The notes below the pieces were generated by a model. The model saw only the letters and a list, made by a program, of their open reading frames with translations, did no database searches and was not told the DNA's origin. The translations under genes and the position numbers were made by a program. From Magnetococcales bacterium (GTDB lineage: Bacteria > Pseudomonadota > Magnetococcia > Magnetococcales > DC0425bin3), in the NCBI GenBank assembly GCA_015228935.1, contig JADGCO010000042.1, positions 1 through 36,188 of the forward strand: 36,188 nucleotides of DNA. Direction: 5' to 3'. Below, piece after piece: positions 7,272 to 35,057 of the stretch; the stretch's first letter is position 1, and each line of letters starts with the position of its first letter.

Positions 7272-8501
7272 TCAGCGTTTGGCAACCCGCTGCATCCAGG
7301 CAGCCATTTGCCCCGCCACCTGGCTGCCGTGATATTGCTGCCGAACGTCGGCATCTCCCCAGGGCAATGTCGGGGGGTTGTCGCGCACCCGGGCAATGGC
7401 CTGGGCCAGGGACGCGGCGGCCAGACCGGGGTTGTCGGGTGGAGCGACCCACCCGCCCAGGCGTTCGATGAGTGTTGCCGCCGCGCCTGGGGGCGTCAAC
7501 CCCAGGATAGGCCGTCCGGCACCAATATAATCCACCAGCTTGCTGGGCAGAAAAACGCTGGTTTGGGCCGGGGCATCCAAAACCAGCAACAGATCCGCCG
7601 AGGCCATGAGTTCCAGGGATCTTTGATAGGACACCGGACGGTGGATCGAAAGCGTGTGCAACAGCAGGGATTGCAGACCGGTACGCGCCAGGACCGTTGG
7701 CGAAAAATCGCCATGCAATTCAATCCGAACATCGTCAAGGATCCGAGGTTGCCGTTCTGCCAGCCTGGCCAGGGCCAGAAACAGGGCCTGGGGGGTGCGA
7801 TTGCCATAAAAATTGCCCAGATAACGCAAAACAACAGGGTGGCCGGGTGACCTGATCTCCGTTGTTGCCGGAAAAGCGGTTGGATCGAAACCGTGGGCCA
7901 CGACCCCCACCTTTTGCCGCCAGGCAGCCGGATATTTGGCCATGACCAGATCCACGGTTTCGGCAGAGGTGAAGATGGCCCCGTCAACCTGTTCCAGAAC
8001 AGCATGTTCCATCCGGCGTTTCAGCCAGATGTCCATGCCATGTGCCGTATCCAGCGGATTGTCCACCCATGGATCGCTGAAGTGGGCCAGCCAGGGAATG
8101 TTGACCTGTTTCCTGATTTCCAGACCCGCCAGATGGGTGGACATGGGTTGACCAAAAGTGACCAGAAGATCCGTATCCTGGAGCCATCCCTTGGCCAGAA
8201 TGGTCCGGGCCGCCCGGAATGACCAGCTCCGGTTGGCATCCGGAATTCCCCAATATTCCGGCAACACGAGATCCCGATAACGATGCATCACCTGACGCCA
8301 GCCGGATTCTGTCAGACGCTGAATGGCCTGGGGTTTTCCCTCTTTTTCCTGGACGATGGTTGGATCGATGGGTTCATGGGCACGACCGGAGGCACACACC
8401 ACATGGACTGGAATATCGAGGAACTTGACCAGTCGGGAAATTTGGATGGAGCGCGGATAGCGGAGTGGGGGATAGCAATAAGTCAGAAACAAGGCCTTCA
8501 T
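7272..8501 (-). CDS. Glycosyltransferase, GT4-like
   Basis: A 409-residue GT-B fold glycosyltransferase. The N-terminal domain begins MKALFLTYCYPPLRYPRSIQISRL. The C-terminal nucleotide-sugar domain has VVLRYLGNFYGNRTPQAL and a family-4-like end motif VFLPSKLVDYIGAGRPILGL. ATG 8501 overlaps the stop of the preceding asnB-type gene (ATGA overlap), so the two are translationally coupled. It is the last gene of the glycan run that starts at the polysaccharide deacetylase gene. Donor and acceptor cannot be predicted from sequence. Confidence 0.85.
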   Translation of the reverse strand: MKALFLTYCYPPLRYPRSIQISRLVKFLDIPVHVVCASGRAHEPIDPTIVQEKEGKPQAIQRLTESGWRQVMHRYRDLVLPEYWGIPDANRSWSFRAARTILAKGWLQDTDLLVTFGQPMSTHLAGLEIRKQVNIPWLAHFSDPWVDNPLDTAHGMDIWLKRRMEHAVLEQVDGAIFTSAETVDLVMAKYPAAWRQKVGVVAHGFDPTAFPATTEIRSPGHPVVLRYLGNFYGNRTPQALFLALARLAERQPRILDDVRIELHGDFSPTVLARTGLQSLLLHTLSIHRPVSYQRSLELMASADLLLVLDAPAQTSVFLPSKLVDYIGAGRPILGLTPPGAAATLIERLGGWVAPPDNPGLAAASLAQAIARVRDNPPTLPWGDADVRQQYHGSQVAGQMAAWMQRVAKR

Positions 8502-10378
8502 GACCACACCCGCAGCCACTCTTCAAAGACGATGAGAATCCAGATGCGATGGGCGGCTTCGATATCACCTTGGCGGGCTGCTGCCAACACCGGCACCAGC
8601 GGTGCCGGATCGAACCAGGCATGCAGACGGGAGCCGCGATCCAGCAATTTTTCCCTGGCCCAGGCTCCCAGATGCGCTTCCTGCAACCAATGGTAGGCAG
8701 GTATGGGAAATCCCTGCTTGGGTCGTGCAATGATGGCCGGCGGCAGCAAACCGGCGGCAAACTGGCGCAAAATGCGTTTGGATTGAAAACCTGTCCTGAC
8801 TGTGCCCACTTTCCAACTCAAAGGCAGATGCGCGGCCCACTCCACCAGGGCATGGTCGAGAAAAGGGGTGCGCAGTTCCAGGGAGGCGGCCATGCTCATG
8901 CGATCCGCTTTCATCAATAAATCATCCACCAGCCAGGATCGGCAATGCACCTCCTGGATGCGATCCAGGGCATGCAAACCCGGCGCGGCATGATACCAGG
9001 AACGAATCAGATCCTCACTGGAGAGTGATGGAGGTGCCTGGTGCCAGAGGCGGATTTTATCCGCTTCCGACCAGTGTCGTGTGATATGCAGGGGCAGGGC
9101 GGCAGGCAGGCTTGCCAGGTCGTTCCGGGCCAGGGCCGTCAAATGGTGTTGCCAGCGTGGCAACCAACGCGACAATCTTCTCAACAAACGCGACGGCAGA
9201 AAAGGGGTCAATTTTTGCAGATAATGCAGTTTGGCGATGAACCGTTCCATGTCATAGCCGGCCAGAACTTCATCGCTTCCCTCACCGGAGAGGACCACCT
9301 TGACCTGTTGCCGGGCCTGAAGGGAGAGGTGATACAGGGGAATGGCCGTCAAATCGGCCAGGGGTTCATCGGTGGCCTGGACCAGGTGTGGCAGAGAGTC
9401 CAGAAAGGTTTTCTGGTCGATGCACACTTCGTGGTGCTGCGCTCCCAGGTGATCGGCCACCTGTCGTGCCCAGGTCAACTCATTGGTCTGGTTGGTGGCG
9501 TCGGCAAACCCGACACAAAAGGTGTGAAATTTTTGATGTCCCAACGCCACAGCGGCAGCACTGATGGCGCTGGAATCCAACCCGCCACTCAAAAACACCC
9601 CAACCGGCACATCTGCGGCAAGCAGGCGTTTTTCCACTGCCGCCAGAAACAGTTCCCGAAACTCCTGGCGGGGATCCCGGGCGGGATTGTCAGGTTCGGA
9701 CTGAAAATGGACCGACCAATAGGTGCAGGTGGTCAAACCACCGCCATCCAGACGATATTCGAGCCGTTCACCCGGGGCCAGACGTTGCATGCCCTGCCAG
9801 ATGCAAGCGGGAGCCGGCACGTAGCGCAAGGTGAGATAGTGGTGGATCGCCTCCCGGGAGAGGGGCGGTCGCACCGGCAGTGCGGCAATGATTGCTTTGA
9901 TTTCACTGGCAAAATAAAACAGTCCCTGAAAGATTCCATAATAGAGCGGCTTGACCCCGAGCCGATCCCGGATCAGGTGGACCACTCCGGTACGGGGATC
10001 ATACAGGCAGATGGCAAACATGCCTTCCAGGCGCTGGATGGCGGCAATACCGTAACAGTGGTAGAGGTTGAGCAACACTTCGGTATCGGAGTGGGTGACA
10101 AAGTGGTAACCGCGTGCCTCCAGTTCATGGCGCAGGGCACGATAGTTATAGATCTCTCCATTGAAGACAATGCCGACGCCATCCGGGGTCCACATGGGTT
10201 GCTGGCCGGTGGCGAGGTCGATGATGCTCAACCGGCGCATGGCAAAGGCGAAGCGATCCGTGGACCAGATGCCTTCGCCGTCCGGTCCCCGATGGTGGAG
10301 GGTTGCGTTCATCCGGCGCACAAGGGTGGCACCTTCCTGGGCCGGGAAGTTCCCGGCAACGCCTACGATGCCACACAT
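8498..10378 (-). CDS. asnB: Glutamine-hydrolysing asparagine synthetase family protein
   Basis: The 626-residue protein has an N-terminal class II glutaminase domain starting MCGIVGVAG (Cys2 is the nucleophile), with RGPDG and FNGEIYNY motifs. The C-terminal synthetase domain carries the PPi-loop SGGLDSS at residues 264-270 and GEGSDEVLAGYD. All catalytic residues are present. Homologues inside surface-polysaccharide loci often amidate sugar acids or similar substrates rather than making bulk asparagine. Its position between a methyltransferase (16-bp overlap) and a glycosyltransferase (4-bp overlap) favours such a role here, but asparagine synthesis is not excluded. Confidence 0.9.
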   Translation of the reverse strand: MCGIVGVAGNFPAQEGATLVRRMNATLHHRGPDGEGIWSTDRFAFAMRRLSIIDLATGQQPMWTPDGVGIVFNGEIYNYRALRHELEARGYHFVTHSDTEVLLNLYHCYGIAAIQRLEGMFAICLYDPRTGVVHLIRDRLGVKPLYYGIFQGLFYFASEIKAIIAALPVRPPLSREAIHHYLTLRYVPAPACIWQGMQRLAPGERLEYRLDGGGLTTCTYWSVHFQSEPDNPARDPRQEFRELFLAAVEKRLLAADVPVGVFLSGGLDSSAISAAAVALGHQKFHTFCVGFADATNQTNELTWARQVADHLGAQHHEVCIDQKTFLDSLPHLVQATDEPLADLTAIPLYHLSLQARQQVKVVLSGEGSDEVLAGYDMERFIAKLHYLQKLTPFLPSRLLRRLSRWLPRWQHHLTALARNDLASLPAALPLHITRHWSEADKIRLWHQAPPSLSSEDLIRSWYHAAPGLHALDRIQEVHCRSWLVDDLLMKADRMSMAASLELRTPFLDHALVEWAAHLPLSWKVGTVRTGFQSKRILRQFAAGLLPPAIIARPKQGFPIPAYHWLQEAHLGAWAREKLLDRGSRLHAWFDPAPLVPVLAAARQGDIEAAHRIWILIVFEEWLRVWS

Positions 10379-23291: not shown

Positions 23292-23744
23292 TCAGTTTCC
23301 GGAGCTGACGACAAACTCGGTGCCACGGACTGCCAGCACCGATGTTCGGGTATTGATTTTCATGGCTTCCGGGGTTTGTTTGACAATTTTTCCCGATTTG
23401 ACTGCCAAGGTACCCTGGCGCAATGAGCTGTTGAAGACCCCCGCATGTGTTGTGCTGTTGAATTCAAATTTGTCCAGGGCCAACACGGTATCAGGTCCCA
23501 CGGCCATGGTGCTGTTGTCGATGAAGACAATGCCAACCGAACCGTCCCCCCCGGTGTGGATCACATCGGCCTGTTGCAGGGCATCCCCGGTTTTGAGGGG
23601 GGTCTTATTGTTGTTTTTTTCAATGAAAACAGCACCTTGTACATTTTTTACCTGGCCAATCCCGTTCGCATGGGCTGCTGTCATCATGGCAAGAAGAGTG
23701 AGGATTGTGATGGACACGGTCTTTGCGGGTGACGGGTATCCCAT
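23292..23744 (-). CDS. Secreted FecR-domain protein
   Basis: A 150-residue periplasmic protein with a signal peptide (TVSITILTLLAMMTAAHA) and one FecR domain (GAVFIEKNNNKTPLKTGDALQQADVIHTGGDGSVGIVF then RTSVLAVRGTEFVV). ATG 23744 has GGAGA close upstream; an ATG at 23756 is also in frame. FecR-domain proteins are common beside OmpA and CHASE2 proteins. Here it is the first of three co-directional genes with tight spacing. The 5' part is duplicated as a fragment at about 30520-30585. Confidence 0.85.
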   Translation of the reverse strand: MGYPSPAKTVSITILTLLAMMTAAHANGIGQVKNVQGAVFIEKNNNKTPLKTGDALQQADVIHTGGDGSVGIVFIDNSTMAVGPDTVLALDKFEFNSTTHAGVFNSSLRQGTLAVKSGKIVKQTPEAMKINTRTSVLAVRGTEFVVSSGN

Positions 23745-23806: not shown

Positions 23807-24715
23807 CTATCCCAGTTTTATTGCCTTTTCTTTTAACATCCTCATAAATTCACTAATTTCAGAATCAATCAGTTGATGGTCACAGATTTTTCTTGCCAAC
23901 TCCAACCTTCTGGGATCTGAGAATCCAAACCATTTGCAGAACCTCACCAAAAACAGTTTTCCATCGATCAAATAGTTAAGCTGGTCCCAGTGGTCTTCTG
24001 GAGTTCCAGTCTCATCATGCAAGAAGGATCGGATAGCTTTACATTTAATATCAATTTTTTCTTGTGCATCTGAAATGCCCTGTGTTTCAAAATACCGGAT
24101 AACGAGTGGTGTTAGACTCTGTATATCTGAATAATTTTGTTCGAAGAGAGGTTTTATCGGTATCCGATCATGCTCTATTAACACCAGATTGGCTGCTGTC
24201 ATCAGGATAGCTACAGCAGAAAAATCCAGGAGGCATTGGGCTGCGGCATTTGGTGAACAAGTAACGTTGCTTTTAACCTCGGCATCCTGCATCAGCTTAC
24301 CTACAGCAACCGGATGCAGAAGATAATTCTCTATTTCCCAACGTCGCAATACTTTAATGTAAGGGCCAACATGGGCAGCCGACTCGAAGGCAGCATGGTT
24401 TGATTCCAAGAATGCGTCCCAATTGGAACCACGACCCATGACTTGATCATTTAGAAGGACATCACGGTCTACAATACCAAATGCTGGGACGTTACAATCC
24501 CGATCCTTCTGTACACGATGAAAGACTTGAGAGGATCCGCCCCCACCGCCTTCTTGGGCATCTACCGACTGGAACTCAATCCATTCGCTCCAACCTCTGA
24601 ACCAACGTTCATGGAATATTTCCAAGTCTTCGCGGGATTCCAAGTACAGCATGATCCTGCTCGAATACTGCCTTCCAATTGCTTCTGGTTCATACATTGT
24701 CGAAAAATTTCCCAT
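23807..24715 (-). CDS. DUF4435 (TOPRIM-like) protein, PARIS AriB-like
   Basis: A 302-residue protein with DUF4435 features: acidic SRIMLYLESREDLEIF near residue 25, AFGIVDRDVLL (VDRD, residues 82-85), and the family's RRWEIENYLLHP. DUF4435 has a TOPRIM-like nuclease fold. In PARIS anti-phage systems such a protein (AriB) is the effector held by an ATPase (AriA); here the ATPase gene sits just upstream (23-bp gap). ATG 24715 has AGAGGAT 8 bases before it. The DNA is more A/T-rich than its neighbours, suggesting transfer. The PARIS-like reading is inference; another ATPase-nuclease system (OLD-like) is possible. Confidence 0.75.
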   Translation of the reverse strand: MGNFSTMYEPEAIGRQYSSRIMLYLESREDLEIFHERWFRGWSEWIEFQSVDAQEGGGGGSSQVFHRVQKDRDCNVPAFGIVDRDVLLNDQVMGRGSNWDAFLESNHAAFESAAHVGPYIKVLRRWEIENYLLHPVAVGKLMQDAEVKSNVTCSPNAAAQCLLDFSAVAILMTAANLVLIEHDRIPIKPLFEQNYSDIQSLTPLVIRYFETQGISDAQEKIDIKCKAIRSFLHDETGTPEDHWDQLNYLIDGKLFLVRFCKWFGFSDPRRLELARKICDHQLIDSEISEFMRMLKEKAIKLG

Positions 24716-24738: not shown

Positions 24739-25884
24739 TTAGATCTCATCGGTTTCAATTAGATGTCCACCCAAACGCAAGCCATGTTCACCAACTTTCA
24801 TATCTATGCCATACTGATCGATTAATTCACGAGAATGCGTCGTAACAATGATGGTGATATTAGGGTTGGCTGTGACAACTCGTTTGAGTGCTTGATAGAG
24901 GCGGTGTTGCAGCTTCGGGTGTAGATGGGCATCCAATTCGTCGATCAACACGAAACTGTTGCTGGTAAGGTGCAAATGGATTCGCAGCAATAGCTGCAAG
25001 AGGCTTTTTTCTCCGCTGGAAAGTTGGTCAAGACGATGGTGACCTTCCCCTGCTATGATACGTGCTTCCATATATTGGCGGCTTATGCTATCCAGAGCCT
25101 TATTGGTTCCGGTGAACACCAACTCGTTGAGCAGGACCTGCATAGCTTCATAACGACCATCGTTCAGCCAAGTCAGCCAGACAAGAACGTTGTCCAGACT
25201 GTGTTGCCATTGATCTCCGTGCAAGCCAAAACGATGCAGGGGGCGATAGAACCATTCGGGGGGACGACTGATGGATTGTGAGTCGTCGGAAACAGTGGGT
25301 ATATCTCGATAGGCATCGAAGTAGAGTAGCGAGGGGACAGTCATCGGATCTGGTCCGAAACTTTCGTAGACATTTTCCATCTCCAATTTGACCAAGCCCA
25401 GAAGCTCGTCCACCAGAGGTTCTTGGGATCTGACCTGCTTCCAATGCCCCCCTGGGGTACGGGACTAGGCGATGTGCATGTGTTCTTCGGTTTGTACTCG
25501 CTTCAGGTCACGTGCATTCCAGCTTCGGGTTTCATGGGGAGAACCACCCCCCGCAGCGAGGGTCAGAAGAACCTCTTTGACTTTGCCTTCCATTGTGACA
25601 GCAAGGCGCATGTCCAGTTGAGCACGTGCATCCGGATTCGACCACAACCGTTCATGGGGTGGTTTTGGGGTGAGGGAAGAATCCAGGATGTTCATCAGAG
25701 CGGCCATAGCCTCCAGGAGAGTGGTCTTGCCTCGTCCATTGGGCGAAATGAGCAAAAAAAAGTTGCAGCTCTCCCCCTCTTTATTGGTGAAGTCCAGATA
25801 AAATGGCTTGTCCTGAAACGGCCCCATGGCGAACAGAGTCAGAGCAACAGGGTGACAACTGCGAATAGACAAAGCGCGGTCCAT
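24739..25884 (-). pseudogene. AAA ATPase (AriA-like) split by an in-frame amber codon
   Basis: The ABC/SMC-like ATPase is continuous in one frame except for TAG at 25465-25467 (codon 140). The N-terminal half (25465-25884) has Walker A SPNGRGKTTLLEA. The C-terminal half (GTG start at 25413) has the signature LSSGEKSLLQLLL, Walker B FVLIDELDAHLHP and the TTHS switch. The sense codon was probably CAG. With the stop the protein cannot be whole; it may be a pseudogene, a sequencing error, two co-expressed fragments, or amber readthrough. It starts 2 bp after the FtsK-fusion stop and precedes DUF4435. Confidence 0.8.
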
Positions 25885-25886
25885 TC

Positions 25887-27395
25887 TTACGTTCTCCCTT
25901 CTTCGCGGATCACTGCGGCGATGTCGTCTTCGGTCACCAGTACACCATGCAGGCGTACAATTGGTTCACCACTTAGTCGGACCAGCATGTCCCCGATTCC
26001 GGTAAGGCGCTCTGCACCAACTTCATCCAAGATAATTTTGGATTCCGTGGATTTCTGTACTGTCAGGGCAATACGTGATGGAATGTTGGAGCGAAGCAAG
26101 CCGTTCAGGGTACGGGCATCGGGACGCTGGGTGGCTATGATCAAATGAATACCTGTGGCACGCGCTTTCTGCGCCAAACGGATCAGGTGTTCCTCGGCCT
26201 CGGGAACCTGCATCACCAAGTCTGCAAGTTCTTCCACAAAAACAACGATGTATGGAAGCATTACCAGCCCCTTTCGACGTCCTTCCGAAAGATCTCGTAC
26301 TCCAGCATTCTCCAGCGCGGTAGTGCGTGCATCCATTTCTTCGGTCAGCGTGCCCAATCGAATACGGGCATCCACAACGTCGGTGATCACATCAATCCGT
26401 CTGGAATGCACCTTGGCGTATGGCGCAAATTCAACCTTTTTAGGATCTATGAGTACCAGATCCAATCGATTATTGGGCACGCCAACCAGGAGCGAGATGA
26501 GTAGAGAGTGCAAACAAATGCTTTTTCCACTGCCTGTTGTTCCACCAACAAGCAGATGGGGTTGGCGGGTAAGATCAAACGACACTGGTTCACCAGTCAC
26601 GCTTACGCCTGGCCAAAGGGGTAAGCCAGCGGACTCAGGAACATCTTTCGCAACCCATCCCATCAATTCCCGGCAGGGAACGGCATTCCAGGTACTGCGT
26701 GGACGAGGCACATCCAAACCAATAATTTTTGGCTTGCCAGTCTCGGCCAGGAAGACCCCCTGCTTCTGGAGGCCCAATGCGAAGGTGATCTTATCCAGTC
26801 CGCGCCGGACTCGATCCAGGTGGTTAGGGTATTCCAAACGAACCTGATAGCGGGTGATCCGTGGTCCGTCCTGAGTTGAAATGATTTCTCCCTGAACACC
26901 GATCTCGCCCAAGGCATCGATCAGGAGAAGGGCAAAGTCAGCTCCACTATTCTCCGTCTCTCGTCCCAGTCCCGCGCACAATTCCTGGTAAAGAAACTGG
27001 TGAAAATCATGGCTTTCACGCCATCCGCGCCGAAATTCCCTTAGCCCCCGGCGGACATGGCGTTGTAAATGGGTACGGAAAGCAGCATCATCGGCGAACA
27101 AATCCTGATTGGCATGTATACTCAGAAGGCCACAAATTGCGTCGGTGTAGTCCTGTTGTTGCCCGGTGGCACTTCGACCCTGGTTCCGCCCAGTAACCTG
27201 TTCCAGATGATATTCCGATCCCTTTTCCTTTTCGAGTACTCGATCCAACTCCTCATCTGGAGGGGTTTGGATCTTGAGCGAATGAGCCAGTGCCAATCGC
27301 ATCACTGTCCATTTGGGAGCTTTGACTCTGAGTCCTTTGAATAAGACATCCTTGATGGTCTTTTCGTCTTCCGAACTGGTATAGATGTCCGCCAT
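25887..27395 (-). CDS. DndE-like domain fused to FtsK/SpoIIIE translocase
   Basis: A 502-residue protein. Residues ~10-125 resemble DndE, a small nicked-DNA-binding protein of phosphorothioation systems (LRVKAPKWTVMRLALAHSL, TPPDEELDR, then DDAAFRTHLQRHVRRGL). Residues ~165-500 are FtsK-like: the GPRITRYQVRLE region, Walker A GGTTGSGKS (284-292), Walker B LVLIDPKKVEF, and GIHLIIATQRPDARTLNGLL. The FtsK gamma domain is absent, so it lacks KOPS-type orientation and is unlikely to be the cell-division FtsK. GAGGG is 6 bases before the ATG; it follows dndD by 12 bp. DndE assignment is by motif only. Confidence 0.75.
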   Translation of the reverse strand: MADIYTSSEDEKTIKDVLFKGLRVKAPKWTVMRLALAHSLKIQTPPDEELDRVLEKEKGSEYHLEQVTGRNQGRSATGQQQDYTDAICGLLSIHANQDLFADDAAFRTHLQRHVRRGLREFRRGWRESHDFHQFLYQELCAGLGRETENSGADFALLLIDALGEIGVQGEIISTQDGPRITRYQVRLEYPNHLDRVRRGLDKITFALGLQKQGVFLAETGKPKIIGLDVPRPRSTWNAVPCRELMGWVAKDVPESAGLPLWPGVSVTGEPVSFDLTRQPHLLVGGTTGSGKSICLHSLLISLLVGVPNNRLDLVLIDPKKVEFAPYAKVHSRRIDVITDVVDARIRLGTLTEEMDARTTALENAGVRDLSEGRRKGLVMLPYIVVFVEELADLVMQVPEAEEHLIRLAQKARATGIHLIIATQRPDARTLNGLLRSNIPSRIALTVQKSTESKIILDEVGAERLTGIGDMLVRLSGEPIVRLHGVLVTEDDIAAVIREEGRT

Positions 27396-27407: not shown

Positions 27408-29441
27408 TTAATCCTTGTACATGGGCCGGTTTTCCACCCGTGTCTGATCGCCATGGGGGTTGTCCAACTTGTATTCCCGATAGATATAGGAGGAAAGCAT
27501 TCGATATTTTTCCTTATCCAACTCCGAATCGGTAGGAAGCACGATGACCTGTTCCGCCACATGGGGAAAGTAGTCCCGAAGCAGGTTTTCCTGATTTTGC
27601 CGATCAATTCTGGCCAGGGGGGTATCAACGATCACTGGGACTGACTTTTCCGATACATCCTTCAACGCCCATAACAAAGCGAAGGCGACCAATTGTTTCA
27701 TTCCTGCCGACAGATTGGCTCCCCCCAATGGTTGACTTTCTCCATCCTGGTAATGAAGTCCGAAATGTTCATCCACCCGGATAGAGTGAACCAAATCGTG
27801 GCTGGTCATCAGGGTTTTGAAGTGGGCATTTATGGCAACCTCCAGAGCGTTTCGGCGACGTATTTTCAGCCCCTCCTTGTATTCCCTATACAACGCCACC
27901 AAGTCATCGGCCTTTTGGCGACGGGCATTGGATCTGTTGGCGACGGCCATCTTCTGTTCTTGCTGCCTGCTTTCATCCTGTTTACGTTCAAAATCCCTTT
28001 GGATTCTTTCGAAGTCGGCATCAAGTTTGCCAATAGTTTGATTGCACTCGTCCCTTTCCTTATGCAATCGACTCAAGGCCTCCTGCACTTGAAGATAACG
28101 CTCTCGATCCTCCTCAATAACTGTACTAATGCCATCGAGCCTTTGTTGTAGTTCAATCTCCCTTCTGGCCAAGCGGCTTGTCTCGTCCAAGCGACGAGCG
28201 TGAATGTGGAGGGATGGGGCATCAACCACTCTGATCAGCAGACGCCGCAAGGCTGATTGCCGTTCACTCGCTAACCCCAGTCCACCATGGCCTACATTAA
28301 GATCGTCCTGAAGATTGCCGGGAGCCAGGGCATCATTCAAACGCTGCCGATAGAACTGCTGCTGCTCATCACGCAAGCGAAAAGAAACCGGGGCAGGTCG
28401 GTCAAAGACCTGGAGGGGGAGATGACTTCGTAGATAATTCAACAGCTCCTTTTTTGACCATAAAGACTGGTCGTCCTCCTCCAAGCGATCCAACAACTGT
28501 TGCACCAAAGGCAAGTTGACCGCCAGTGGAGCTTCCGGAATGAACTGGTCAACGATCTCTTGGCGCAGTTCGGCCAAACGCTCTTGAACTTTTTCCAGTT
28601 CCGTCTTGTGACTGGCTTCCTCCTCCTTGGCACGAAACCCCTGCATGGTGCGCCGACGGCGTTCCAAATCAGATATCTGGTCGTTGAGCGAGTCCAGTTC
28701 GACACGGCATTCTCCTCGCCGCGCTTGTACATGGGAGAGCTGGTCCTGCAACTCCTCCATTTCTCTCTGAACGCGCTTGAACTGAATCTTTTCGGCCTCC
28801 GCCGCCCCTTCCTGAGACCATTGCCGTTTGGCTTTATCCAAATAGGTCAACAAGGAGTTGACTGGGGCGATGTTGAGAATCCCCTCCACATGCTCTTCCA
28901 TCTGTTCCCGGTTGGCCTCGGCCATAACCTGGATTTTCTCACCATCGAAGAAGAAAAATGGAAGATAGGAAGCTGGCAGACGACGTTCCAGAAATTGTTG
29001 TGCTTCTGACCCTTCCAGGGGTTCATCCAGAAAGGTCGCCCGGATGGTCAACTTCCCGTTGGGGTCGAATTCTCCTTCATCTGGATACCACTGACGACGC
29101 GCATCGACCACGCCATCGCTTTCTCGCCACTGGCTGCGAACGTAGTAACCGGCATGGTTCTTATTCTTGCTGCGGCGATTGAAGACTCCCATCCATTCCT
29201 CGCCGTGGCCAACCATGTACAATTTTGGACTCAGTTTCCGCCCTGCCTGGACTTCATTGCGCAGATCCTCAGTGGGACCGCAGAACAGCAGCTTGATGGC
29301 GTTGAGAAAGCTGGTTTTGCCGTAACCATTGCGCCCGCTGATCAGGACAATGGGGCGTTGTTGTTGATGGCCGGTCAGGTCAAAGGTAACCTGATCCTGG
29401 TAGGAGAAAAGATTGGCGATTTCAATTTCCTGAAAGACCAT
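27408..29441 (-). CDS. dndD: DNA sulfur modification protein DndD (SMC-like ATPase)
   Basis: A 677-residue Rad50/SMC-like ATPase. Walker A GRNGYGKT is at residues 36-43 followed by LLFCG, typical of DndD. Long coiled-coil arms occupy the middle; the signature LSAGMKQLVAF is at 577-587 and Walker B PVIVDTPLARID at 601-612. In Dnd systems DndD acts with DndC and DndE to place sulfur in the DNA backbone, probably by driving ATP-dependent nicking or structural change. The ATG is 3 bp after the dndC stop, with GGAGGAG inside the end of dndC. No damage is visible. Confidence 0.88.
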   Translation of the reverse strand: MVFQEIEIANLFSYQDQVTFDLTGHQQQRPIVLISGRNGYGKTSFLNAIKLLFCGPTEDLRNEVQAGRKLSPKLYMVGHGEEWMGVFNRRSKNKNHAGYYVRSQWRESDGVVDARRQWYPDEGEFDPNGKLTIRATFLDEPLEGSEAQQFLERRLPASYLPFFFFDGEKIQVMAEANREQMEEHVEGILNIAPVNSLLTYLDKAKRQWSQEGAAEAEKIQFKRVQREMEELQDQLSHVQARRGECRVELDSLNDQISDLERRRRTMQGFRAKEEEASHKTELEKVQERLAELRQEIVDQFIPEAPLAVNLPLVQQLLDRLEEDDQSLWSKKELLNYLRSHLPLQVFDRPAPVSFRLRDEQQQFYRQRLNDALAPGNLQDDLNVGHGGLGLASERQSALRRLLIRVVDAPSLHIHARRLDETSRLARREIELQQRLDGISTVIEEDRERYLQVQEALSRLHKERDECNQTIGKLDADFERIQRDFERKQDESRQQEQKMAVANRSNARRQKADDLVALYREYKEGLKIRRRNALEVAINAHFKTLMTSHDLVHSIRVDEHFGLHYQDGESQPLGGANLSAGMKQLVAFALLWALKDVSEKSVPVIVDTPLARIDRQNQENLLRDYFPHVAEQVIVLPTDSELDKEKYRMLSSYIYREYKLDNPHGDQTRVENRPMYKD

Positions 29442-29444
29442 CAG

Positions 29445-30077
29445 TCAGGTCTCCTCCACGTTGTCCATGGCCCGCTCGATAGTTTCTCGGATCGCCCGTT
29501 CGAATTCAATCTTCTTGCCATAATTGTCGAGATTTGGGTGGTACTCATAGGCCAGTCGCAAAAGGCTCTGTATCAATTCCTGGCTCAACGGGCTATCGAC
29601 GAGCAACTCCTCCAGCACATCATCCTGGGTATCTGTAGCCATGGCACCCTCCCAGCGGCTTGGGGAACGTCCAAATTTATGAGCCAGTTGCCAAAATCCT
29701 TCGTTCGGCTCGGGTCGTACCAGTTTCACGGAGATGGGAAGGTCGGAGACTTCGGCAAACGCCTGCATTCGCCGGATGGCATCAGTCAGGTATTCTTCGA
29801 TATTGGGGGCCTCGACGCGGGTATCGGTTGAAATGATGAAAACCGGTTTGGACACCCGAGATCCCAGTTCCATGAGCATGTTGTACACGAGCTGCACCAG
29901 CAGGGTCGAATCCTTGCCCCCAGAAAATGCAACCACCCAAGGCCGTTCGTCCCGGGTGTAAAGAGTGCGCAGTGCGGAAGATGTCTTTTCAGCAATACCT
30001 TCTGGTTTCAATGGGGATTCTCCGGGGGCGAACTGCATGTCCATATTGAACCTCTGCATGGTGCGTCCCACCATCAT
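29445..30077 (-). CDS. dndC: Shortened DndC-like ATP-pyrophosphatase
   Basis: The first ~130 residues match DndC: TLYTRDERPWVVAFSGGKDST (P-loop SGGKDST at 52-58), FIISTDTRVEAPNIEEYL and RPEPNEGFWQ. A short tail of about 80 residues (DSPLSQELIQSLL...RETIERAM) follows. DndC is usually ~450-550 residues and binds an Fe-S cluster via cysteines in the central part. That part is missing and this protein has no cysteine at all. The frame is intact and the stop is coupled to dndD, so it is either a decayed dndC with an in-frame deletion or a minimal derived form. Confidence 0.75.
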   Translation of the reverse strand: MMVGRTMQRFNMDMQFAPGESPLKPEGIAEKTSSALRTLYTRDERPWVVAFSGGKDSTLLVQLVYNMLMELGSRVSKPVFIISTDTRVEAPNIEEYLTDAIRRMQAFAEVSDLPISVKLVRPEPNEGFWQLAHKFGRSPSRWEGAMATDTQDDVLEELLVDSPLSQELIQSLLRLAYEYHPNLDNYGKKIEFERAIRETIERAMDNVEET

Positions 30078-30313
30078 TAGGAAGATTCGAGTGTTCCGTT
30101 GAACATCCGGTGGAGCATGGCGGGAAGCAGAGCATCCAGAGAGGTTTCGATTGGCGTCTTCTGTCGCTGGATTTCATTGGCTCGTTGAATGATTTCCAAC
30201 GCTCTTTCCTGGCGCTCCAATATTTGGCATGCGAACTGGCATGGCCAACAGCATTTCTGGTTGCAGCCTTTGCCGCATCGCGCCCTGACCCCAATGGCAC
30301 GTAGATAGGAGAT
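30077..30313 (-). pseudogene. 3' remnant of a gene, perhaps hsdS
   Basis: An open frame of 78 codons without a start ends in TAA at 30077-30079, overlapping the dndC-like ATG as TAATG. The end resembles the C-terminus of type I restriction specificity subunits (helical QERALEIIQRANEIQRQK then SLDALLPAMLHRMFNG). Upstream is a cluster of six cysteines (RCGKGCNQKCCWPCQFAC), not typical of HsdS. A frame change near 30300 is possible. The rest of the gene is absent, so it is a fragment. Confidence 0.45.
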
Positions 30314-30650
30314 TTATTTTCGTTTTCAACTGATTGTGACGTTGCTCCCCTGATGGTGCATGATTAACGCATCTCAAGTGCCAACCAAGTAGCGGCTCTC
30401 CCATGCCTCAATTGTCCCGGATTTCATGCCTCCAGTCCATGAAAATCCACATGAAACCTCCGTAATCATTCCCTGAACCGGGCCAAATGAGTTAATCGGA
30501 AGGGACAACCCACGTGAAATAGCAAGGAGCCACATCTTTGACCCGGCCAATCCCGTTCGCATGGGCTGCTGTCATCCAGGCCATCAATCCCTGGCAAAGG
30601 TCCTGATTTGCGGAACGACCGGGCAGGATAAGGGGTATGGAAACTGCCAA
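30314..30650. other. Intergenic region with a fecR fragment
   Basis: About 340 bp without an intact gene. On the minus strand, roughly 30520-30585, the frame reads MTAAHANGIGRVKDV, homologous to the signal-peptide cleavage region of the fecR gene at 23.7 kb. A stop follows shortly, and the upstream part differs. Bases 30545-30576 are identical to 23654-23685 (32 of 32). The remaining sequence (30314-30520) shows no recognisable gene or clear promoter. Confidence 0.65.
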
Positions 30651-32330: not shown

Positions 32331-32364
32331 TCCAGGGTGACGCCCGTTGCATGGGACAACAACC

Positions 32365-33984
32365 ATGAGTTCCATTTGTGTCATGATTCCCGCCATCAAG
32401 AAAAATGTCGCTTTCACCGACGATCTGGTGAAAAAGCTGGCAGGAATTCCCCTGATTCTGCGTGCCATCAACAAGGCCAAGGAACTGACCGATCCGGAAC
32501 AGGTGCATGTCGTGACCGACTCCATGGAAATCCATCTGTTGGCGCAACGTCATGCAGTGCATTCATTCCATGACAAGGATTTGGATCTGCTGCGGCCCGG
32601 ATTTCCCAGGAGCATGCGCTTTTTTTTGGGTCGCATTGCCCGACGTCACACCTGTGTGGTTTTGCTCTCGCCTTATGCCCCATTGTTGACGGCGGCCACA
32701 ATCAAACAGGCCATACAGATTTTCCAGGAAACCGGGTGCGATCTCCTGCTGCCACTCTCCATGCAGAGGTACCGGGGAGGCACGACCCATTTGCCGGATA
32801 TGCAGGAGCTGCTGCTGGCCGCCAAACAACAGCTCCTTTTTGTGGAGTCCCGGTCATTCCGGATTTTCAATCCGACCCGGATTTTGCAAAATACGCCGCA
32901 GAGTGCATGGCGCATTCAGCCCTTTTTGTTGGAAAGTGGCCTGCCGGAAATAGCCGATTTCCAGGATTGGTGGATTTGCGAAAAAATCATTCGACGCCGG
33001 CGGATTGTTTTTCGGGTCGTGGTCGATGCGACCAAGGGAACCGGACATATATTTCGGGCCATGGCCCTGGCCCACGAGATTACGGATCATGAAATCGTGT
33101 TTGTCTGTAACGACCTGCACCATGAAACAGTCAAAAAACTTGCCGGTTTCGACTATCGATTGGACGTGTTTTCCGACTCCGAAATGGTTGATTCAATCCT
33201 GCGTCTCAAGCCGGATATGGTTGTCAACGATATTCTCGATACCGATGCCGCCTATATCGACAGACTGCATCAGGCCGGGATCAAGGTGGTCAATTTCGAG
33301 GATTTGGGCAGTGGTGCCCCCCTGGCTGACCTGACGATCAATGAACTCTATGATGAACCACAAATACAGGGGCATACCATTCATTGGGGACATGGGTATT
33401 TTTTCTTGCGGGATGAATTCAACGATGCCCGACCGCATCGTTTCAGGGAGAAGGTGGAGAGCATTCTGGTCACCTTTGGTGGCACGGATCCCAATGACTT
33501 TACCCGCAAGATTTTTCATGCCATCCACCCGTACTGTCGGGAGAAGGGGATCCGTATATTCATTGTCACCGGGGCCGGTTATGGCAACATCGAGGTGTTG
33601 AACCGGGAACTGGCTGCCATGCAAAGTGCGGATGTGGTTTTCACGCATGCGACAGGCGTCATATCCCAGATCATGGAAATGACGCCCATTGCCATTTCCG
33701 CCAATGGTCGGACCGTATATGAATTGGCGCACATGCACATTCCCGCCATTGTCCTGTCGCATCATGCCCGGGAGATTACCCACCGTTTTGCCCGGGAAGA
33801 GAATGGCTTTCTCAACCAGGACATCTATCACGCCGGTTTGACCGAGCAGACCGTCCTTGCGAACCTGCAACGTCTGGTGGAGGATCACGCCTTTCGCCGG
33901 GAACTGTTTGATCGCGTGCGACGTTATAATTTCACCCGTAACAAGTCAAAAGTATTGCGGATGATCCTGAAAATATTGGAGTGA
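32365..33984 (+). CDS. NeuA-like / PseG fusion protein
   Basis: A 539-residue fusion. The N-terminal ~210 residues resemble CMP-nonulosonate cytidylyltransferase (SSICVMIPAIKKNVAF, KLAGIPLILRAINKAKEL, VHVVTDS), but the CTP-binding RxGSKR motif is replaced by IKKN, so activity may be lost. Residues ~220-539 resemble PseG, the UDP-sugar hydrolase of pseudaminic acid synthesis (VVDATKGTGHIFRAMALA with its catalytic His; TFGGTDPNDFTRKI). ATG 32365 follows a GGGA. The neuB/pseI-like gene overlaps or follows immediately. Substrate (pseudaminic, legionaminic, other) is undetermined. Confidence 0.8.
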   Translation: MSSICVMIPAIKKNVAFTDDLVKKLAGIPLILRAINKAKELTDPEQVHVVTDSMEIHLLAQRHAVHSFHDKDLDLLRPGFPRSMRFFLGRIARRHTCVVLLSPYAPLLTAATIKQAIQIFQETGCDLLLPLSMQRYRGGTTHLPDMQELLLAAKQQLLFVESRSFRIFNPTRILQNTPQSAWRIQPFLLESGLPEIADFQDWWICEKIIRRRRIVFRVVVDATKGTGHIFRAMALAHEITDHEIVFVCNDLHHETVKKLAGFDYRLDVFSDSEMVDSILRLKPDMVVNDILDTDAAYIDRLHQAGIKVVNFEDLGSGAPLADLTINELYDEPQIQGHTIHWGHGYFFLRDEFNDARPHRFREKVESILVTFGGTDPNDFTRKIFHAIHPYCREKGIRIFIVTGAGYGNIEVLNRELAAMQSADVVFTHATGVISQIMEMTPIAISANGRTVYELAHMHIPAIVLSHHAREITHRFAREENGFLNQDIYHAGLTEQTVLANLQRLVEDHAFRRELFDRVRRYNFTRNKSKVLRMILKILE

Positions 33985-33998
33985 GGGGAATGTCAGCC

Positions 33999-35057
33999 AT
34001 GCAAATCCAGACCCTTTTTCAATCTGCGACGGAAAGACCTGACCGCTGGGTACGTCCATTGGTGATTGCCGAGGCGGGGGTCAACCACCAGACCGATATG
34101 CAGACGGCCCGGCTCCTGATTGAATTGGCCCATGACGGGGGGGCGGATGCCATCAAATTTCAGACGTACAGGGCGGAAACCCTGGCTTCACGACACTCCC
34201 CGGCCTATTGGGATACGACCCGGGAACCCACGACGAGTCAATACGAATTGTTCAAAAAGCACGATGCTTTCTGGAAACGTGAGTTTGAACTCTTGAAGCG
34301 CCATTGTGACCAGGTGGGCATTCAGTTCATGAGTACGCCCTTTGATTGGGAGTCGGCGCGTTTTTTGAATGATCTGATGGAGGTATTCAAAATTTCCTCT
34401 TCGGATATCACCAACCGGCCTTTCATCCAGTATATTGCCGAATTTGGCAAACCGATTCTTCTATCGACCGGGGCATCCCGCCTCTCGGAAGTTCAGTCTG
34501 CTGTGGAGTGGATTGATCAGACCGGTGTGCCCCTGGCGCTTTTGCACTGCATTCTCAATTATCCCACCCGGGATGCCGATGCCAATCTGGGCATGATGCT
34601 CGATTTGAAACGCCATTTTCCGGGACGCATCATCGGGTATTCGGACCACACCCTGCCTCGGGACATGAAGACACTGGAGGTGGCCGCGATTCTGGGGGCG
34701 GAAATTGTCGAAAAGCATTTCACGCATGACAAGACCTTGACGGGAAACGATCATTATCATGCCATGGACCGGGATGATCTGCGCAAGTTTTTGCAGTCCA
34801 TGGAGCGGGTTCGCCTGGTGATGGGGGCGTTCCACAAGGCACCCCTGGAGAGTGAGGAGCCGGCCCGTCGCCACGCCCGGCGCAGTATTGTGTTGAGCCG
34901 GTCAGTGGTTGCGGGGGAGGTCCTGAGTGCCGATCATTTGACCTGCAAACGTCCCGCTCATGGCATTTCGCCTGCCCATTGGAACGAGGTGCTGGGGCAT
35001 CGGGTGCGTCATGCCCTGGAGGCCGATCATGTGTTGACCTGGGGGGATTTGGCTTGA
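33999..35057 (+). CDS. NeuB/PseI-family nonulosonic acid synthase
   Basis: Condenses phosphoenolpyruvate with a 6-carbon amino sugar to make a nine-carbon sugar acid. Motifs: LVIAEAGVNHQTDMQTARLL, DAIKFQTYRAETL, FMSTPFDWESA, KISSSDITN, LLSTGASRLSEV, GYSDHTL and EKHFTHDKTLTGNDHYHAMD. The C-terminal SAF (antifreeze-like) domain begins RRSIVLSRSVVAGEVLSADHL. ATG 33999 with AGGGGA 9 bases upstream gives 352 residues; GTG 33981 (overlapping the previous stop) and ATG 33990 are in frame. It belongs to the nonulosonic-acid cluster; whether the product is Neu5Ac, Leg or Pse cannot be told. Confidence 0.9.
   Translation: MQIQTLFQSATERPDRWVRPLVIAEAGVNHQTDMQTARLLIELAHDGGADAIKFQTYRAETLASRHSPAYWDTTREPTTSQYELFKKHDAFWKREFELLKRHCDQVGIQFMSTPFDWESARFLNDLMEVFKISSSDITNRPFIQYIAEFGKPILLSTGASRLSEVQSAVEWIDQTGVPLALLHCILNYPTRDADANLGMMLDLKRHFPGRIIGYSDHTLPRDMKTLEVAAILGAEIVEKHFTHDKTLTGNDHYHAMDRDDLRKFLQSMERVRLVMGAFHKAPLESEEPARRHARRSIVLSRSVVAGEVLSADHLTCKRPAHGISPAHWNEVLGHRVRHALEADHVLTWGDLA

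What the first reader, a model, noticed from the sequence alone, without database searches (positions are those of the whole stretch)
29445..30077. DndC-like protein of 210 residues without any cysteine
The ATP-pyrophosphatase half with SGGKDST is intact, but the central part that carries Fe-S ligands in known DndC proteins is missing, and the whole protein contains no Cys. The frame, stop and coupling to dndD are kept. Either an in-frame deletion of about 250-300 residues inactivated sulfur transfer, or this is a minimal ATP-using protein with a different job.
Basis: partly seen in the sequence, partly recalled or inferred. Interest (0 to 1): 0.7.

Follow-up and report, generated by a model that had tools for sequence, protein, structure and literature searches.

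The report
Deleted DndC with its docking tail
This is a DNA-sulfur-modification gene that recently lost its catalytic middle in one clean in-frame cut, so it almost certainly can no longer put sulfur into DNA; relatives lose the same gene repeatedly yet keep its small tail, which resembles the part that holds on to the partner motor DndD, together with the rest of the defence operon.

Summary
The ORF is 210 aa, has SGGKDST and has no Cys. It aligns to an intact Magnetococcales DndC (453 aa, 7 Cys) over residues 23-125 and 374-452. The two blocks abut at 29688/29687, so 248 codons were lost in frame. The loss covers the DNA-reading loop and all Fe-S cysteines. The missing middle is nowhere else in this genome, and the surviving half shows no relaxed constraint, so the loss looks recent. 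The neighbouring AriA-like gene also carries a nonsense codon.

In Methylobacter and Mesorhizobium it is its own gene (Pfam Sp-DndD, "DNA modification system-associated small protein"). It corresponds to the segment of E. coli DndC that binds DndD.

In this order dndC is broken in 4 of 7 readable loci, by at least 3 independent events. All keep this module plus dndD and dndE-FtsK; AriA/AriB are intact in three of the four.

Verdict: a recent loss-of-function deletion in a decaying copy. It belongs to a wider pattern in which the sulfurtransferase is dispensable and its DndD-docking tail is retained. Selective retention is suggestive, not proven.

The parts
29445..30077 (-). Internally deleted dndC ORF, 210 aa, no Cys (the finding)
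29691..30077 (-). Remaining N-terminal half of DndC (residues 1-129), PP-loop SGGKDST intact
   Evidence: L002 23-125 aligned at 60%; 78% aa identity and pN/pS 0.17 to G021
29687..29688 (-). Deletion junction; L002 DndC residues 126-373 missing
   Evidence: Abutting alignments; A2 alignment; parental sequences compared, no clear microhomology
29448..29642 (-). Sp-DndD-like module (65 aa, MATDTQDDVLEELL...), the DndD-docking end of DndC, with its own ATG
   Evidence: 46-63% identical to six other Magnetococcales tails; homologous small gene in Methylobacter and Mesorhizobium; PF20306 matches 11 of 17 aligned relatives, best 6.9e-15, but not the window member itself
29647..29653 (-). GGGAGGG, Shine-Dalgarno-like, 4 nt before the ATG of the Sp module; possible internal start
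   Evidence: Same purine run before the ATG in G042, G026 and G009; weaker in G021 and G044
27408..29441 (-). dndD, SMC/Rad50-like ABC ATPase, 677 aa, Walker A and signature motif intact
   Evidence: TIGR03185 261.3 bits, cut-off 245.85; motifs
25887..27395 (-). DndE-FtsK fusion, 502 aa
   Evidence: FtsK_SpoIIIE 1.9e-37; DndE 1.9e-4 (22.1 bits, cut-off 25); Walker A GTTGSGKS
24739..25884 (-). AriA-like AAA ATPase gene, broken by an in-frame TAG
   Evidence: TAG at 25465-25467; W in six of seven relatives, L in G026; AAA_21/AriA profile hits
23807..24715 (-). AriB-like (Toprim/DUF4435 type) gene, 302 aa, intact
   Evidence: PADLOC AriB 2.1e-7; LYLESREDLEIF and GIVDRDV motifs

Best explanation
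The ORF is a dndC gene that recently suffered a single in-frame deletion of about 744 nt (248 codons). SHOWN: the PP-loop half and the C-terminal 65 aa remain; the DNA-reading loop (GKGYPSPTRWFRW in L002) and all Fe-S cysteine positions are gone; no other dndC is present in the genome. INFERRED: it cannot mobilise sulfur, so the cell makes no Dnd phosphorothioate, and the N-terminal half is a dead leader. The C-terminal 65 aa are a complete Sp-DndD-type module, the segment by which DndC docks on the DndD head and coiled coil, still in frame, with its own ATG and Shine-Dalgarno-like sequence, directly before dndD. So the ORF can at most still supply a docking peptide to DndD. At family level, module + DndD + DndE-FtsK + AriA + AriB behaves as a unit that can persist without DndC: sister loci have lost dndC and kept these genes intact. 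In this particular genome the AriA nonsense codon means the effector arm is probably dead too, so this copy is a defence island in early decay.
For: Alignment with intact DndC and exact abutment; missing Cys and loop; missing middle found nowhere else in the 4.7-Mb assembly. DndC residues 433-482 plus the C-terminal helix bind DndD, and L458D/E462A/R471A abolishes it (PMC12193691); those residues were located in an E. coli DndC with matching numbering, and by inspection lie in the stretch that aligns with the Sp module. Sp homology: separate gene in Methylobacter and Mesorhizobium; Mesorhizobium Sp matches the L002 tail at E 1.9e-8 and DndC model C-termini at 1e-3; the Sp-DndD profile's only hit in 299 genomes fell in the tail of a full-length DndC. 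Recurrent dndC loss with the module kept: G026 stop plus frameshift, G044 and G018 5' truncations, G462 in another order. Tree gives at least 3 independent losses; dndC 4/7 broken against 1/31 for the other operon genes, p = 0.002. Recency: pN/pS of the surviving half 0.17 and of AriA behind its stop codon 0.17.
Against: No reads were available, so a misassembly is not formally excluded. Docking by the Sp module is inferred from homology and was not tested; the window's own tail does not reach the PF20306 profile by itself. Relative to DndD+DndE-FtsK, the module's terminal branches are somewhat longer in dndC-broken lineages (ratios 1.19-1.66) than in intact ones (0.59-1.17), which hints at relaxed rather than retained constraint. 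The other losses may also be recent, so persistence is not yet shown to be selected.
Confidence: 0.68

Rival explanations
1. Plain decay: the whole island is dying, and the Sp module, dndD, dndE-FtsK and AriB are intact only because too little time has passed; keeping the tail means nothing.
For: AriA nonsense codon in the same operon; both lesions look recent; slightly faster Sp evolution in dndC-broken lineages; three breakpoints upstream of the tail are not unlikely by chance (388 of 453 codons lie upstream of it).
Against: In G026 and G018 every other operon gene is intact while dndC is broken or missing, and in G044 what is visible is intact too (dndD is split over two contigs); dndC is hit significantly more often than the other genes; retained sequence begins at L002 residues 374, 374 and about 391, just before the module start at 390.
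Confidence: 0.35
2. Assembly artefact: the genome carries an intact dndC and the 744-nt gap is a misassembly or population variant.
For: Draft assembly in 197 contigs; no reads available; a single example of this exact junction.
Against: Missing segment absent from the rest of a 100%-complete assembly; both sides are in frame; no direct repeat at the junction that would cause collapse; other related assemblies carry different dndC lesions.
Confidence: 0.08
3. A minimal cysteine-free ATP-using protein with a new job, kept by selection.
For: PP-loop intact, frame and coupling to dndD kept; pN/pS low.
Against: No second example in genome contigs or in 100 relatives; the remnant lacks the second half of the PP-loop/PAPS-reductase fold (L002 matches that profile over residues 43-226, the window over 48-106); AriA behind a stop codon shows equally low pN/pS, so low pN/pS only means recency.
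Confidence: 0.04

Closest known systems
DndC (TIGR03183), phosphorothioation sulfurtransferase
   Same: N-terminal PP-loop segment with SGGKDST, C-terminal DndD-docking module, position directly before dndD
   Different: Lacks about 248 central residues including the Fe-S cysteines and the DNA-reading loop; no Cys at all; far below the family cut-off
Sp-DndD (PF20306), 'DNA modification system-associated small protein'
   Same: The last 65 aa are homologous and sit immediately before dndD, as in Mesorhizobium and Methylobacter
   Different: In the window it is in frame with a DndC remnant; the window sequence itself is too divergent for the Pfam profile
Dnd systems with DndE fused to HerA/FtsK (Rakesh et al. 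2024, PMC10853773)
   Same: DndD-related ABC ATPase followed by a DndE-FtsK fusion; DndC absent from about 30% of taxa with Dnd modification components in that survey
   Different: That paper's main text does not mention PARIS or AriA, nor a link between the small protein and the DndC C-terminus; here the unit also carries AriA/AriB-like genes, and the loss of dndC is caught in progress
PARIS (AriA/AriB)
   Same: AAA_21-type ATPase followed by a Toprim/DUF4435-type protein
   Different: Weak profile similarity, embedded in a Dnd operon; AriA is interrupted by a stop codon in the window

Membership tests
DndC (TIGR03183) | PP-loop SGGKDS(T/S) | tested here: met
   SGGKDST present
DndC (TIGR03183) | Fe-S cluster cysteines (C146, C273, C280, C283 in E. 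coli B7A) | tested here: not met
   No Cys; equivalent positions deleted (PMC12193691)
DndC (TIGR03183) | DNA-reading loop GYPxPxRxFRW | tested here: not met
   Loop lies in the deleted interval
DndC (TIGR03183) | Full-length score above the curated cut-off | tested here: not met
   95.3 bits against 290.4
DndC (TIGR03183) | Sulfur transfer to DNA | not testable with these tools
   Needs LC-MS or iodine-cleavage assay
Sp-DndD (PF20306) | Profile match above cut-off | tested here: not met
   Window tail has no hit; 11 of 17 aligned relatives match, best 6.9e-15
Sp-DndD (PF20306) | Homology to a stand-alone small gene next to dndD | tested here: met
   Mesorhizobium Sp matches the L002 tail at E 1.9e-8; the window tail is 57% identical to the L002 tail
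Sp-DndD (PF20306) | Binds DndD | not testable with these tools
   Inferred from the E. coli DndC docking mutants (PMC12193691)
DndD (TIGR03185), gene 27408-29441 | Equivalog score above cut-off | tested here: met
   261.3 against 245.85 bits
DndE (PF08870), N-terminus of gene 25887-27395 | Pfam score above cut-off | tested here: inconclusive
   22.1 against 25 bits, E 1.9e-4
PARIS | Intact AriA plus AriB | tested here: not met
   AriA interrupted by TAG at 25465-25467; AriB intact

The most novel reading that the evidence does not exclude
The C-terminal DndD-docking domain of DndC is the same thing as the stand-alone small protein Sp-DndD, and the unit Sp + DndD + DndE-FtsK + AriA + AriB is a phosphorothioate-independent defence machine. 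DndC is an optional, repeatedly discarded add-on, and the small docking piece must stay for the DndD motor to work.
Probability: 0.3. Interest if true: 0.75.

Novelty: new variant of a known kind. Interest (0 to 1): 0.48.

Why it matters
About 30% of taxa with Dnd modification components lack DndC (PMC10853773), and what their DndD/DndE machines do is open. These loci catch DndC loss in progress, inside one bacterial order, and show what is kept: a 65-aa module that corresponds to the DndD-docking end of DndC and exists elsewhere as its own gene. That turns the question into a simple binding and defence assay. If loci with intact AriA/AriB live happily without DndC, the effector is not a restriction activity that attacks unmodified self DNA.

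Tried and rejected
AlphaFold2 models of L002 DndC and of the window ORF were poor (mean pLDDT 51.5 and 56.0, only 3-4 sequences) and were not used; no fold search was run on them. PDB sequence search with L002 DndC found nothing. Microhomology at the junction: compared with G021, G026, G042 and G009, no clear repeat can be named without the parental allele. L007, which matched the tail region, is an unrelated protein. I first read the Sp module as fused to DndC in four Methylococcales loci; checking frames showed it is separate there. An empty insertion site in the same-genus genome G002 was sought and not found as one contig. A Gammaproteobacteria-centred phylum search returned the same loci under new handles. 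An HsdS-like look of the fragment upstream of dndC was not supported by Pfam.

Full report
OBSERVATION. The 210-codon frame lies on the minus strand, 30077 to 29445; the plus strand of the same interval is interrupted. The protein contains SGGKDST and no cysteine. DndC models match only about residues 30-130. A cysteine-free 210-aa protein is by itself not remarkable (P = 0.15 at local Cys frequency).

WHAT WAS LOST. One genome-contig scan gave an intact relative, L002 (Magnetococcales MAG, contig JADGCE010000131.1), with the same gene order. Its DndC (453 aa in the frame used, Cys at 142, 246, 257, 264, 267, 343, 384) aligns with the window over 23-125 and 374-452; the two blocks meet at 29688/29687. 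So 248 codons are gone in frame. They include the loop GKGYPSPTRWFRW and the cysteines equivalent to the Fe-S ligands of E. coli DndC (PMC12193691). The rest of the 4.7-Mb, 100%-complete assembly contains no other DndC and no displaced middle part. L002 is the genome G042, listed as the same order as the window's genome, so the window is from a Magnetococcales bacterium (inference).

RECENCY. Between the window and its relative G021 the surviving N-terminal half is 78% identical with pN/pS 0.17, no worse than intact DndC pairs (0.30-0.34). The AriA segment downstream of an in-frame TAG in the same operon gives the same value, 0.17. Both lesions therefore look recent. The TAG (25465-25467) replaces a Trp codon kept in six of seven relatives, Leu in the seventh.

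THE TAIL IS A MODULE. In Methylobacter (L003, L006) DndC stops before the tail, and a 68-70 aa gene whose ATG overlaps the dndC stop precedes dndD. It is separate in all Methylococcales loci examined and fused in the intact Magnetococcales loci and in G170 and G194. Pfam Sp-DndD (PF20306) matches 11 of 17 aligned tails, best 6.9e-15, but not the window's own. In a search of 299 genomes its only hit lay inside the tail of the G170 dndC. In Mesorhizobium amorphae plasmid pM0123d the annotated 'DNA modification system-associated small protein' starts a unit small protein - ATPase - FtsK - ATPase - hypothetical, beside a separate dndC whose product lacks the tail. These proteins match the window's DndD, DndE-FtsK, AriA and AriB (E 1e-73, 6e-124, 5e-52, 2e-5), and the small protein matches the L002 tail at 1.9e-8. 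It also matches the C-terminus of DndC models. In E. coli B7A, DndC 433-482 and the last helix bind DndD, and L458D/E462A/R471A destroys binding (PMC12193691). An E. coli DndC with identical landmark numbering places these residues in KLIELEVSMEGLSRRQG, which by inspection aligns with the LLRLAYEY..NLDNYG stretch of the tail. The tail alignment's invariant residues L30 and G42 fall there. So the tail most likely is the DndD-docking domain; binding was not tested.

RECURRENT LOSS. Eight Magnetococcales genomes carry the DndE-FtsK gene. dndC is intact in G042, G009 and G021; in-frame deleted in the window; stop plus frameshift in G026; reduced to the tail in G044 (L002 373/374-452) and G018 (391-452, beside an RluC-like gene); and unreadable in G034 (contig end). 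A DndD+DndE-FtsK tree pairs the window with G026 and G044 with intact G042. The window's deletion covers the site of G026's lesions, so a shared first hit cannot be excluded: at least three, at most four, independent losses. The other genes are intact except the window's AriA; G044 dndD is split over two contigs. dndC 4/7 against 1/31 for the others gives p = 0.002, counted on few genomes. In Methylococcales, G462 has a ruined dndC (PP-loop SRGRDST, early stop) but an intact small gene, with an IS30-type insertion in dndD; most others are intact.

IS THE TAIL KEPT BY SELECTION? For: no stops or frameshifts; identity in broken lineages tracks DndD identity; retained sequence starts just before the module. 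Against: with the topology fixed, the module's branch relative to DndD+DndE-FtsK is longer in the four broken lineages (1.19-1.66) than in the three intact ones (0.59-1.17), hinting at some relaxation. Verdict: suggestive only. A Shine-Dalgarno-like GGGAGGG before the module's ATG occurs in the window, G042, G026 and G009, but it also encodes Trp-Glu, so an internal start is a possibility, not a finding.

MECHANISM. Shown: the deletion and its contents, the module's homology, the repeated losses. Inferred: no sulfur transfer; docking of the module on DndD; a unit able to exist without phosphorothioate, because loci with intact AriA/AriB lack dndC. If AriB were set free by unmodified self DNA, such cells should not survive. 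In PARIS, AriA holds AriB inactive until triggered (PMC12409363); by analogy the window's AriA nonsense codon probably disables this arm here.

KNOWN OR NEW. DndE-FtsK fusions next to a DndD-like ATPase, and frequent absence of DndC, are published (PMC10853773). I found no paper in the held library linking Sp-DndD to the DndC C-terminus or describing AriA/AriB in this unit; subscription papers and supplements were not searched. New variant of a known kind.

Noticed in passing
window 25465-25467 (-): In-frame TAG in the AriA-like gene; Trp in six of seven relatives, Leu in G026.
   Followed up: yes
window 23641-23690 and 30532-30581: 50-nt direct repeat (90%) flanks the island; the left copy lies in a fecR-like gene, the right copy is a fragment of it, suggesting insertion at fecR.
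   Followed up: partly
window 30080-30304 (-): Open stretch ending in KTPIETSLDALLPAMLHRMFNGTLESS directly before dndC, reminiscent of a type I HsdS C-terminus (from memory); no Pfam hit.
   Followed up: partly
L051 (G462) about 7427-8530: IS30-type transposase inserted in dndD of a Methylococcales locus whose dndC is also ruined.
   Followed up: partly
L003 9513-11775: IS21-like pair inserted between dndD and dndE-FtsK in Methylobacter luteus; the DndE part is truncated.
   Followed up: no
L056 (G664): dndC frame ends early at a TGA where relatives have Trp, just before the Sp gene; possibly another dndC lesion.
   Followed up: no
L039, NZ_CP087976.1 70672-78862: Rhizobium plasmid copy of the double-DndD locus with many frame breaks.
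   Followed up: no
L004: Methylococcaceae MAG dndC truncated after CTVVK by an unrelated sequence; no DndE-FtsK gene found in that genome.
   Followed up: partly
window 32347-35057 (+): Nonulosonic-acid-type genes: a 545-aa protein with weak NTP-transferase matches, followed by NeuB with a SAF domain.
   Followed up: no
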